From positions 62,001 through 126,000 of the forward strand of contig NZ_SNUK01000001.1 in NCBI RefSeq assembly GCF_012027495.1: 64,000 nt of DNA. The letters are read 5' to 3'. Shown in pieces: positions 47,893 through 51,744 of this stretch. The notes beneath the pieces are model-generated. The model saw nothing but the letters and a program-made list of their open reading frames with translations, was not told the DNA's origin and made no database searches. Positions within the stretch are counted from its first letter, which is position 1. Every line of letters begins with the position of its first letter. Origin of the DNA: Thermococcus sp. JdF3. Its GTDB lineage: Archaea; Methanobacteriota_B; Thermococci; Thermococcales; Thermococcaceae. Both the position numbers and the translations under genes were made by a program.

Positions 47893-48942
47893 TCATTCCA
47901 GGGCGAGCTTTACGAGTGGATCCGTGAGGCTGTACTCACCGTTTTTCTCTTCAACCCACCCCATCTTCTTCAGGTTCTTCAACAGCTCATGGAGTCTCGG
48001 CTCGGGGGTTCTCATCTTCTTGAGCTCCAGGTAGTCGCGTATGAGGCTCCACCGGTTGTAACCCATAGCTATTGCTCTCAAGATTCCAATGTACCGCCTG
48101 CTCCTTTTCTCGAGCTCTGAGAGCTCGCCGAAGATGAGCCCTTTGGCAACCTCCAGCGTGGCGTTCATGGCCTCCTGGAAGCTCCCCTTCTCAAGGTATT
48201 TCGCCCCAAACAGGACGAGCCAGCCGGGGATTCCATCGAGTACCGATACTGCTTTTTCAATGTCCTCTTCGGATACCTCAACACCCGCCTCTTTGAAACC
48301 TGCCTTTAAGAACGCCTTCGAGGTTTCTCCATCGAAGGGCCTCACGTAAACCTCTCCCCCCACCCTGCCGTAGAGCGGGCTCCCGTAGTCACCTATGCCC
48401 AGGAAGTCGTGGAGCAGACCGACCTCTGAGCCCGTTAGCACTATTCTGAGGTTCGGCAGGCTGTCGTAGGCGTGAGCAAAGAGCGCCAGCAGCTCTTTTC
48501 CACCCCTTGAACCGTAGAACCGGAGGTACTGGGCTTCGTCAAAGGCGATGATGAACCTCCCGGTTTTCTCACCGACCTCGTTCAGCTCCCTGAAAATCTC
48601 CCTCAGCGATGCTCCCCTTGGCTCGACCTCAAGGAACCTCAGGTTCAGCTTTAGCCGGAACTTGGAGAGAACCCTCTGCATCAGAATTCCCTTCGACTGG
48701 AGTTCTCTCACGAGGTCTTCTCTAGCTATGTGCCCGCTCTCGGCATAGAGTTCCCTGCAGTCTATCAGGATCCCCGGGTTCTCGCTGAGGTACGCCCTGA
48801 GCAGGGAGCTCTTTCCAACGCGCCTTATGCCGAGGAGGAGCGTTAGGGGATACCTCTCAATGCTCCTCTCCAGCTCCCTAAACTCCTCGTCCCTGTCAAA
48901 AATCTCCTCTCTCCTGCTCTTCGGTCTCAGGTCGAACAGCAC
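47893..48942 (-). CDS. archaeal AAA+ family ATPase (ATPase_2 type)
   Basis: A 349-residue P-loop ATPase of the archaeal ATPase family (pfam01637 type). It opens FDRDEEFRELERSIERYPL, with Walker A GIRRVGKSS at about residues 38-46 and Walker B FIIAFDEAQYL; TGSEVGLL is the sensor segment. The C-terminal 100 residues look like a winged helix (LIRDYLELKKMRTPEPRLHELLKNL). Start is GTG at 48942 with GGTGG upstream. Many such ATPases are linked to mobile elements or defence, but function is unproven. Palindromes cover its leader. Confidence 0.82.
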   Translation of the reverse strand: MLFDLRPKSRREEIFDRDEEFRELERSIERYPLTLLLGIRRVGKSSLLRAYLSENPGILIDCRELYAESGHIAREDLVRELQSKGILMQRVLSKFRLKLNLRFLEVEPRGASLREIFRELNEVGEKTGRFIIAFDEAQYLRFYGSRGGKELLALFAHAYDSLPNLRIVLTGSEVGLLHDFLGIGDYGSPLYGRVGGEVYVRPFDGETSKAFLKAGFKEAGVEVSEEDIEKAVSVLDGIPGWLVLFGAKYLEKGSFQEAMNATLEVAKGLIFGELSELEKRSRRYIGILRAIAMGYNRWSLIRDYLELKKMRTPEPRLHELLKNLKKMGWVEEKNGEYSLTDPLVKLALE

Positions 48943-49024: not shown

Positions 49025-49816
49025 ATGCGGGTCTTTGTCAGGGACTACCTCCTTCCCTGGGCATTCATTGTCGTCTTTTGGTTCGCCCTCTGGCTTATCG
49101 TCCCTCCAATGCGGGAACGCCTAAACGCCGTTAGCCTTCTAATCGTTTTCTTCCTCCTTGGAGTCTTCATCGCCGCTGCCCTTTACTTCGTAGGAAAAGC
49201 CCTTGAACGCTACGGCTACTCCCGCAATGACATAAGGCACCTTCCGGAGATAATCGAGAAAACCCACGGGAGGCTCTACCTTCCGAAAGAGGTGTTCAAT
49301 ATCGTCGGCGACGCCCTTGTCTTCTGGGGTATCTTTGCGTGGGCCCTTCTGGCGACGGGAGACCCAATGATGGGACTTCTAAGCGGAGTTGCAATGTTTG
49401 CTGAAATCATTGCCTTCTTCGTTCTCTTGGTCTCAATGGTCATCTGGGTTATTATCTTTCCCCATTCCCTCTACCGGCTCTTCACCGGGAGGGAGCCGGA
49501 CAGGGGGCTTTTGATTGGGGTTCCCATAAAGCAGAACCTCCTCTGCACGGCAGTCCTCGTCGCGGTCAGGCTCATAGCGCTTCATTCAAACTATCCAGCG
49601 AGTGATGATTTTATTGGGAAGATGGTGGCATTTGGAAGGAACGCGGAGTTGGTGGTCGCTCTCCTTGAGCTTTCGGGCCTAAACTTTCTGTTCGGTATAA
49701 TCGGCCTCTACGGGCCGAGAAAGGCTGGAAAGCTGACAGCGCTGGCATTGACTCTCATCGTCCTCGCGGAGCTGTGGGTTGCTTGGGGAATGCTCGTTGA
49801 TAACCTTCACCTTTAA
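49025..49816 (+). CDS. integral membrane protein, unknown function
   Basis: A 263-residue protein with about seven hydrophobic segments (first WAFIVVFWFALWLIV; then VSLLIVFFLLGVFIAAALYF; DALVFWGIFAWALLA; IIAFFVLLVSMVIWVII and others). A charged loop between the second and third contains a short motif IIEKTHGRLYLP. No transport or enzyme motif is recognised. It starts with leader CCACC after a TATA-like TTATTTACC, so is probably near-leaderless, and reads away from the ATPase. Confidence 0.78.
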   Translation: MRVFVRDYLLPWAFIVVFWFALWLIVPPMRERLNAVSLLIVFFLLGVFIAAALYFVGKALERYGYSRNDIRHLPEIIEKTHGRLYLPKEVFNIVGDALVFWGIFAWALLATGDPMMGLLSGVAMFAEIIAFFVLLVSMVIWVIIFPHSLYRLFTGREPDRGLLIGVPIKQNLLCTAVLVAVRLIALHSNYPASDDFIGKMVAFGRNAELVVALLELSGLNFLFGIIGLYGPRKAGKLTALALTLIVLAELWVAWGMLVDNLHL

Positions 49817-49850: not shown

Positions 49851-51308
49851 TTAAAAATGGCTTATTATTTCCCTAATTTTGTTGGCTAAATGTTTTCTAA
49901 ATGCCCTTTTGTCTAGCACAATGAACGGAGAAGCATCCTCTCTGTTAACAAGACGGGATGTTATTCCCAGTTGGTTCATTTCGTTTAATACTGTTGCTAT
50001 CTCATTTTCAGAAACTTCTAGGGCTCTAATGAGCTCTACGAAAGTGCTTCTTGCTGTAGATGGGTCTGTAACATCGGCAACTTTGGCGATGACATAATAC
50101 ATGGCAAGCCGCTGGGCATAGTACGCAAAGTGTTGAGGTGGGCTTGTTCTGGCTATGAAAAATTCAAAAACCTCTTGAGGAACTTTGTAAACCTCACTTG
50201 TTGGACGCCACCGGGAGTCGTATTCATAGTCCCGTATTGCAAGTCCGAGTCTTTCTAGTTCTTCAAAAAATCTAAGGGCAAAATCTCTAAGTGTTGTTTT
50301 AGACAAAAATCTGGTGAGAAGATACACAGATGGAGCATATCGAGCTGGAGCTGTTGTTAGATGAGATCTAACAACTGTTGAAGTTAGTTCTTCTACAAGG
50401 TTTTTCTTGCTCTTTTTTGGTTGATAAATTGCACCATCGTACAGTTTTTCTAAGGGATGAATCTCGTAAACAATCTTATCATTCCGAGATAGAGAACCTA
50501 CCAGTGTCATCCATATCTCTGCCCCATGATCCTCTATGAGTCTATTTAATTCTCCATTGTGTTTTTGTATTAGACGATTGACAAGGGCACGACCAATAAG
50601 TATACTTCGTTCATTGGGCCGTAATATTAGTTTCCTGTCGTATCCCACTCCAACTCTCTCTGAGCTCGCTAACCTTAACTTTTCGAGAATGGTAATAACC
50701 TGTGGAGGCAAATTAACACTCTCGTATTCTCCTGGGATTCTCGCGGCAGGATTATATCCAACTCTTTGCTCCACTTGAAGCGATCCAGAGATATAAATTA
50801 TTCGCAGGGCATCAAAAACGTCTTCAACGAAATTATCCAGTCCCAGCTCTTGTAGTTCATCCTCAACCTCACGGAGAACAGAGTTTTGAGTATTGACAAT
50901 TTCAATAGCTGGCGTTTTTCTGTCCTCACGGGAAAAATACGGGTGCATTGGTGTTATTTTCAAGTCTTTACGTAGCTCATGTTCAAAAACATCTGGAGTG
51001 AGGACTTTTACTACCTCTCCATCAACAATGACTTTGCTAACATGTTTTGAGGGATTTAGTGTGACGATGTACTTGTAGGTGTATCCATTTAAGACAAGTT
51101 TTCTCGCATCTCTTGCGACATCTCCCTTATCAATTACTTCGACCCCTATAGTTACGGAGTCCTTTTTACCAACAACATCAACCCTTCCGTAACCCCCTTC
51201 GGGGAGGAGTGCAGGTTCTTCTTCCCTCGCGTTAAACCCATAAAACCTGAGAATATTCACAATGGTTCTTTTGACTTCATCATGGTGTGAATAGTTGTCC
51301 CTTATCAT
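49851..51308 (-). CDS. unrecognised 485-residue protein with nuclease-like N-terminus in an AT-rich island
   Basis: Base composition is clearly more AT-rich (about 40% GC by eye) than all neighbours, pointing to horizontal transfer. Residues about 25-110 (NAREEEPALLPEGGYGRVDVV, then SVTIGVEVIDKGD and YKYIVTLNPS) resemble a PD-(D/E)XK nuclease core, with D in RVDVVG and E in GVEV, but the usual ExK lysine is replaced. The middle (about 150-330) is helical; the C-terminus (ENEIATVLNEMNQLGITSRL) looks like a winged helix. GGTGATCTAA precedes the ATG. It may be a stand-alone defence or mobile-element gene; I could not place it in a family. Confidence 0.75.
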   Translation of the reverse strand: MIRDNYSHHDEVKRTIVNILRFYGFNAREEEPALLPEGGYGRVDVVGKKDSVTIGVEVIDKGDVARDARKLVLNGYTYKYIVTLNPSKHVSKVIVDGEVVKVLTPDVFEHELRKDLKITPMHPYFSREDRKTPAIEIVNTQNSVLREVEDELQELGLDNFVEDVFDALRIIYISGSLQVEQRVGYNPAARIPGEYESVNLPPQVITILEKLRLASSERVGVGYDRKLILRPNERSILIGRALVNRLIQKHNGELNRLIEDHGAEIWMTLVGSLSRNDKIVYEIHPLEKLYDGAIYQPKKSKKNLVEELTSTVVRSHLTTAPARYAPSVYLLTRFLSKTTLRDFALRFFEELERLGLAIRDYEYDSRWRPTSEVYKVPQEVFEFFIARTSPPQHFAYYAQRLAMYYVIAKVADVTDPSTARSTFVELIRALEVSENEIATVLNEMNQLGITSRLVNREDASPFIVLDKRAFRKHLANKIREIISHF

Positions 51309-51507
51309 TTAGATCACCGTTGCTATATGTTACCGACTCCAACATTTTAACTTTTATGTATTTAGCCCTTGCTTGGCTTGTTCAAGATAATTATAATTCT
51401 CATCTCAACGGTGCTGTAGCTGAGAAGGGGATTAGCCACATGACGGTTATGAAGAATGAACAGTTTTTTAATATTTTTCCGGTAAACCACTATCGAGGTG
51501 ATTGAGA

Positions 51508-51744
51508 ATGAAGTTTATCATAGTGAAGAAGTTTAGGAACGCGGAGGAGGTTGAGGAATTCATTGGTAGCAACAATGAAGGGCATCCATCGGGGTTACTG
51601 AAACTCGCCATGTTCTTGGTGGGAAGCTTTGGTATTTCAAAACTCCCCTCGCTGAGTGATGCTGGCAGAAATCTCCTAGTTCTAATCTGGGGCGTTTTAA
51701 TCTTCGTCTTGCTCCCCAAACTGTTGGATAGGAAGAAAGGGTAA
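51508..51744 (+). CDS. small single-helix membrane protein in the AT-rich island
   Basis: A 78-residue protein: a soluble start (KFIIVKKFRNAEEVEEFIGS) and a C-terminal membrane helix (LLVLIWGVLIFVLLPKLL) ending in basic residues. GAGGTGATTGAGA precedes the ATG. It diverges from the 485-residue gene across a 199-nt AT-rich gap and converges on ileS. No family recognised; whether it works with its divergent neighbour is open. Confidence 0.65.
   Translation: MKFIIVKKFRNAEEVEEFIGSNNEGHPSGLLKLAMFLVGSFGISKLPSLSDAGRNLLVLIWGVLIFVLLPKLLDRKKG

What the first reader, a model, noticed from the sequence alone, without database searches (positions are those of the whole stretch)
49851..51744. AT-rich island with an unplaced nuclease-like protein and a divergent one-helix membrane protein
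The sequence is visibly more AT-rich than everything around it and has rare-codon-like usage, so it was probably gained. The long gene has a putative PD-(D/E)XK-like N-terminus with a non-standard ExK, a helical middle and a winged-helix-like end, a layout common in stand-alone restriction or anti-element proteins. The small divergent gene could be a membrane partner, but nothing proves the link. This is my best candidate for something undescribed.
Basis: partly seen in the sequence, partly recalled or inferred. Interest (0 to 1): 0.6.

Follow-up and report, generated by a model that had tools for sequence, protein, structure and literature searches.

The report
Undescribed archaeal nuclease-like accessory gene
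This is a gene passed between heat-loving archaea of the order Thermococcales that encodes a protein with a probable DNA-cutting domain fused to DNA-binding domains; it matches no catalogued protein family, sits near antiviral genes in some genomes, and is probably a one-gene defence against invading DNA.

Summary
Window 49851-51308(-) encodes a 485-aa protein in the most AT-rich stretch of the window (GC 0.41 versus 0.57; GC3 0.34 versus 0.75). Its family has no Pfam, NCBIfam, PHROGs, PADLOC or PDB match. It occurs in 15 of 94 Thermococcales genomes, at many unrelated sites, with a gene tree that mixes genera; two copies are decayed. The N-terminus is very probably a PD-(D/E)XK domain: right core topology, Foldseek neighbours mostly PD-(D/E)XK nucleases, D44 and E57 aligned with the D and E of Hjc. 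The standard lysine is always V or I; invariant R66 and K70 in the next helix could replace it. Residues 138-485 look like tandem winged helices with no overall match in the PDB. Close relatives are under purifying selection (dN/dS 0.07-0.15). In one genome the gene sits 6 nt upstream of a complete Hma defence operon; two others lie near a HSDR_N/helicase pair and type I-A cas genes. I infer a stand-alone DNA-targeting accessory nuclease, most likely anti-invader. The small divergent membrane gene is not a partner: it belongs to the ileS side. Cleavage and defence are untested.

The parts
49851..51308 (-). Gene for the 485-aa PD-(D/E)XK-like / tandem winged-helix protein
   Evidence: ORF and SD; 17 homologous loci in 15 Thermococcales genomes, this one included; dN/dS 0.07-0.15 in close pairs among its homologues
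50955..51308 (-). N-terminal domain, residues 1-118, PD-(D/E)XK-like; E30, D44, E57, R66, D67, K70 invariant in 14 of 14 N-terminally complete sequences
   Evidence: AF2 topology H8-22 E26-34 E40-49 E52-59 H64-73 E78-83; Foldseek hits; hhalign to Hjc aligns D44 and E57 with the Hjc D and E, score 26.8 versus at most 18.4 in 60 shuffles; conservation
49854..50897 (-). Residues 138-485: three winged-helix-like segments (about 138-275, 326-390, 391-485) with a hypervariable linker at about 276-325
   Evidence: AF2 model of this part alone, pLDDT 86.3, pTM 0.85; no PDB match with E <= 0.001, only partial low-confidence MarR/PadR-like hits; linker identity 0.27 versus 0.53-0.66 elsewhere
51309..51481 (.). 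AT-rich upstream region of the gene, with its SD and probable own promoter (TATA-like AAAAGTTAAAAT, also in G018 and G036)
   Evidence: Upstream sequences compared; ileS-side homology starts at about 51482
51508..51744 (+). 78-aa small hydrophobic membrane-type protein; belongs to the ileS-side block, not to the nuclease
   Evidence: Homologues in G009 (84% aa) and G054 (61% aa) beside ileS without the nuclease
49025..49816 (+). 263-aa membrane protein on the left flank; in G043 its homologue lies 56 nt from ileS, an empty site without the island

Best explanation
The gene is a member of an undescribed, horizontally exchanged accessory family of Thermococcales encoding a stand-alone DNA-targeting protein. 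An N-terminal PD-(D/E)XK domain, whose catalytic lysine has probably moved to the following helix (R66/K70), would cut DNA, and a C-terminal array of winged helices would bind and select it. The most likely use is single-gene defence against viruses or plasmids. Shown: the family, its spread, purifying selection, invariant D and E, and defence neighbours in some loci. Inferred: catalysis, DNA recognition by the winged helices, and the defence role.
For: [quoted passage not shown] Foldseek returns AF1548, Bax1, McrC, Can2, Hjc and R.BspD6I among the PDB hits and a phage PD-(D/E)XK protein among the top viral hits. Profile alignment to Hjc puts D44 and E57 on the motif II D and motif III E. E30, D44, E57, R66, D67 and K70 are invariant in 14 of 14 while the lysine position is always V or I, and the nuclease domain is the best conserved part, 0.66 mean identity. 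Lysine migration to the motif IV helix is described for DUF506, DUF790 (Bax1) and DUF1626 (PMC1913061). Mobility: 15 of 94 genomes, unrelated sites, empty sites, genera mixed in the tree with strong support, two copies in G008 and G083, decayed copies in G011 and G060. Selection: dN/dS 0.07-0.15. Defence context: 6 nt before hmaA in G041, with an Endonuc_Holl gene, hmaB and hmaC following; 217 nt from a HSDR_N/ResIII pair in G008; near type I-A cas8a/cas3 in G004. Several single genes embedded in Hma have shown antiviral activity (PMC12988326).
Against: No sequence-profile match to any PD-(D/E)XK family or PDB chain. The PDB Foldseek hits are at E 0.003-0.1, and the hhalign probability is only 22% although P is 0.001. 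The canonical lysine is missing throughout. G035 and the shared site of G048, G056, G059 and G060 show no recognised defence gene nearby in what was scanned. Enrichment near defence genes was not tested against random loci.
Confidence: 0.52

Rival explanations
1. It is a DNA-binding regulator or repressor whose nuclease fold is catalytically dead and serves for dimerisation or binding; when near defence genes it regulates them.
For: Canonical lysine absent in all 14; tandem winged helices with partial MarR/PadR-like hits; 6 nt upstream of hmaA in G041. Repressors of defence islands are known, e.g. RptR (PMC12255303).
Against: E30, D44, E57 and the R66/K70 helix are invariant and the nuclease domain is the best conserved part, not expected for a dead domain. 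Most copies stand alone with their own promoter-like region. RptR is a small homodimeric regulator, not a nuclease fusion.
Confidence: 0.17
2. It is a self-spreading gene, a free-standing homing-type endonuclease that copies itself into new intergenic sites.
For: Single-gene insertions at many unrelated sites, patchy spread, decayed copies, low GC.
Against: No shared target-site duplication, terminal repeat or flanking target. Sites are not alleles of one target, as homing requires. Two loci lie near SSV-type integrases and one near a serine resolvase, which could have moved it.
Confidence: 0.11
3. It is a gene of integrated viruses or plasmids, used in their replication or to exclude competitors.
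For: SSV-type integrase genes near the copies in G049 and G083.
Against: No homologue in 50,697 phage records, 72,556 plasmids or the IMG/VR pattern scans; most copies are isolated among chromosomal genes.
Confidence: 0.12
4. It is a DNA repair nuclease comparable to Bax1.
For: Bax1 structures are among the best Foldseek hits and DUF790 shares the missing motif III lysine.
Against: Present in 16% of genomes, mobile, fast diverging (58% identity beside 91% for ileS); no helicase partner conserved beside it.
Confidence: 0.05

Closest known systems
Hjc-like / Mrr-like PD-(D/E)XK nucleases (Hjc, AF1548)
   Same: [quoted passage not shown] D and E of motifs II and III align with Hjc
   Different: No lysine in motif III; fused to a tandem winged-helix array; no significant sequence-profile match
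Bax1 / DUF790
   Same: Foldseek similarity; in DUF790, too, the motif III lysine is thought to have moved to the motif IV helix
   Different: Bax1 is an XPB partner with other domains; PF05626 does not match this protein and no XPB-like gene is conserved beside it
Hma-embedded and single-gene putative defence candidates (HEC, PDC)
   Same: Stand-alone gene, in one genome directly upstream of a full Hma operon, patchy and mobile (PMC12988326)
   Different: No PADLOC model matches it; beside Hma in one of 17 loci; no antiviral test
Winged-helix regulators (MarR/PadR)
   Same: Partial fold similarity of the C-terminal part
   Different: Three winged-helix-like segments in one chain, with an overall arrangement not found in the PDB search

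Membership tests
[quoted passage not shown]
   AF2 model, order of elements H8-22 E26-34 E40-49 E52-59 H64-73 E78-83; Foldseek
PD-(D/E)XK nuclease superfamily | Motif II Asp and motif III Glu | tested here: met
   D44 and E57 invariant in 14 of 14 and aligned with Hjc D and E
PD-(D/E)XK nuclease superfamily | Motif III lysine (ExK), which several accepted families of the superfamily lack | tested here: not met
   Position 59 is V or I in all 14; the described alternative, a basic residue in the motif IV helix (PMC1913061), is available as invariant R66 and K70
PD-(D/E)XK nuclease superfamily | Metal-dependent phosphodiester cleavage | not testable with these tools
   needs purified protein
Bax1 / DUF790 | Match to PF05626 and association with XPB | tested here: not met
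   No Pfam match; no conserved neighbour
Known defence family in PADLOC | Match to a model of the family | tested here: not met
   No hit at E <= 1
Single-gene defence system | Location in or beside defence operons | tested here: inconclusive
   Clear in G041, G008 and G004, not seen in others; no background rate measured
Single-gene defence system | Protection against virus or plasmid | not testable with these tools
   needs experiment
Homing endonuclease | Insertion at a conserved target with defined edges | tested here: not met
   Unrelated sites, no shared repeats at the edges

The most novel reading that the evidence does not exclude
An undescribed archaeal one-protein immune nuclease: a PD-(D/E)XK domain with migrated lysine, exchanged as a module between alleles, controlled by a tandem winged-helix sensor of new overall arrangement that recognises invading DNA without a methylase partner.
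Probability: 0.4. Interest if true: 0.6.

Novelty: new member of a known kind. Interest (0 to 1): 0.42.

Why it matters
Archaeal defence beyond CRISPR and restriction is poorly known, and single-gene candidates make up much of what is predicted (PMC12988326). This gives a defined, previously unclassified Thermococcales family with precise candidate catalytic residues to mutate, in an order where some species can be genetically manipulated. A restriction-like protein without a methylase would also raise the question of how it spares host DNA.

Tried and rejected
The small membrane gene as a partner: rejected by distribution in both directions. Target-site duplications or terminal repeats: direct repeats do not exceed shuffles; a 13-nt inverted match at G008b and a 10-nt one at G018 are not shared by other copies. 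Either half in other company: the C-terminal part and N-terminal part are found only in this family in the 115 genomes of the phylum; weak extra hits (E 0.007 and 0.0255) look like chance, the second lying among type I restriction-modification genes. Viral, phage and plasmid collections: nothing. GTDB r220 pattern scan: only Thermococci, but it rests on two short peptide patterns and can miss distant relatives. Similarity among the three winged-helix segments: none by hhalign. Literature searches gave no description of this family. A Bax1 profile comparison was planned but PF05626 gave too few sequences nearby.

Full report
Observation. The 485-aa gene at 49851-51308(-) has GC 0.41 and GC3 0.336, against 0.57 and 0.751 +/- 0.090 for window genes, and is the clear minimum of the window. 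It has a Shine-Dalgarno sequence GGTGATC just before the ATG, and an AT-rich upstream region with a TATA-like stretch shared with G018 and G036.

Family and spread. No match was found in Pfam, NCBIfam, PHROGs, PADLOC or the PDB with the protein, nor in Pfam or the PDB with the family alignment. Within Thermococcales, 15 of 94 genomes carry 17 loci; the homologues share 41-58% identity with the window protein. They include two copies each in G008 and G083 (one of them cut by a contig end), a copy broken into two frames in G060 and a remnant in G011. No further member was found in 115 genomes of the phylum, in phages, plasmids or viral contigs, or outside Thermococci by a pattern scan of GTDB. 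The gene tree mixes genera: starred branches force at least four changes for the window's genus, which points to horizontal exchange.

Site. The gene occupies different places: beside ileS in the window, G018 and G036; between or beside the same conserved genes in G048, G056, G059 and G060; beside a NIF3 gene in G035; and others. In genomes without it these sites can be short intergenic gaps, for example 56 nt between the 263-aa membrane gene and ileS in G043, and 22 nt (G036) or 47 nt (G027) at the G059 site. The region behind ileS is variable in general. No duplication or shared terminal repeat marks the edges. Window and G018/G036 proteins share only 57-58% identity while ileS shares about 91%, so this is either fast divergence or separate gain at a favoured slot.

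The small gene. Homologues at 84% and 61% identity lie next to ileS in G009 and G054 without the nuclease, and DNA homology runs unbroken from about 51482 through it into ileS. G018 and G036 have the nuclease at ileS without the small gene. It is a separate accessory gene of the ileS slot.

Selection. dN/dS is 0.07-0.15 in six close pairs with dS 0.4-0.8, so the protein is kept functional in those lineages. Between these close relatives the first 100 codons follow a different pairing from the rest: G049 and G056 are 96-97% identical there but only 63-71% to G048 and G059, against 70-97% over the remaining 50-codon windows. This suggests exchange of the nuclease module by recombination; it was seen in one group only.

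Structure. AlphaFold2 with six sequences gave pLDDT 81.9. [quoted passage not shown] Foldseek against the PDB gave no hit below 0.001, but the sensible high-probability hits are AF1548, Bax1, McrC, Can2, Hjc and R.BspD6I; against viral models one of the top hits is named as a PD-(D/E)XK protein. A profile alignment with 17 Hjc-like proteins collected by PF01870 placed D44 on the Hjc D and E57 on the Hjc E, with I59 opposite the lysine; its score, 26.8, exceeds all 60 column shuffles (highest 18.4). Its stated probability is low (22%), so fold and conservation carry the weight. E30, G39, G41, R42, D44, G47, E57, G62-D67, K70 and Y80 are invariant in 14 sequences; position 59 is always V or I. 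In DUF506, DUF790 (the Bax1 family) and DUF1626 the motif III lysine is proposed to have moved to the next helix (PMC1913061); R66 and K70 sit in the equivalent helix here. I could not measure distances in the model, so which of the two reaches the active site is open. The rest, folded alone, gave pLDDT 86.3 and pTM 0.85 with three winged-helix-like segments (my reading of the secondary structure) and a poorly conserved linker. Foldseek found only partial, low-confidence MarR/PadR-like matches, and the three segments do not match each other by profile. Neither half was found in other company.

Neighbours. In G041 the gene ends 6 nt before hmaA and is followed by an Endonuc_Holl gene, hmaB and hmaC, with a serine resolvase on the other side. 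HmaA at E <= 1e-60 occurs in only 11 of 94 genomes. In other Hma operons of the order the hmaA-hmaB slot is empty or holds a 151-aa membrane-type protein or a 184-aa protein, and several genes embedded in Hma have shown antiviral activity in tests reported elsewhere (PMC12988326). In G008 one copy follows a ResIII helicase and a HSDR_N gene; in G004 type I-A cas8a and a Cas3-like helicase lie a few kb away. G049 and G083 have SSV-type integrases nearby. Other sites show no known defence gene among those scanned, and I did not measure how often random loci would. The context is suggestive, not proof.

Conclusion. I judge the PD-(D/E)XK fold likely (about 0.85), retained catalysis more likely than not (about 0.65), and a defence use the best single guess (about 0.55-0.6).

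Noticed in passing
window around 51745 and left of it; loci L065-L094: The stretch behind the 3' end of ileS is a variable slot in this genus: among 30 genomes it holds different small or accessory genes nearly every time.
   Followed up: partly
window 47893-48942(-): An ATPase_2 protein with PADLOC PDC-S27 similarity (E 2.4e-12) lies near the island, and relatives lie near the nuclease in G018, G036 and G008; but related genes also sit at ileS without the nuclease in several genomes.
   Followed up: partly
L185-L190 and L031 (hmaA-hmaB junction): Thermococcales Hma operons carry an exchangeable slot between hmaA and hmaB: nothing, a 151-aa membrane-type protein, or a 184-aa protein (Endonuc_Holl in G041).
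   Followed up: partly
L008, L010, L011, L013, codons 1-100 of the nuclease gene: The nuclease domain appears swapped between otherwise similar alleles: G049 and G056 agree at 96-97% there but differ from G048 and G059 at 63-71%.
   Followed up: partly
window 49025-49816(+): The 263-aa membrane protein left of the island has no Pfam or NCBIfam match and recurs beside ileS in several genomes.
   Followed up: no
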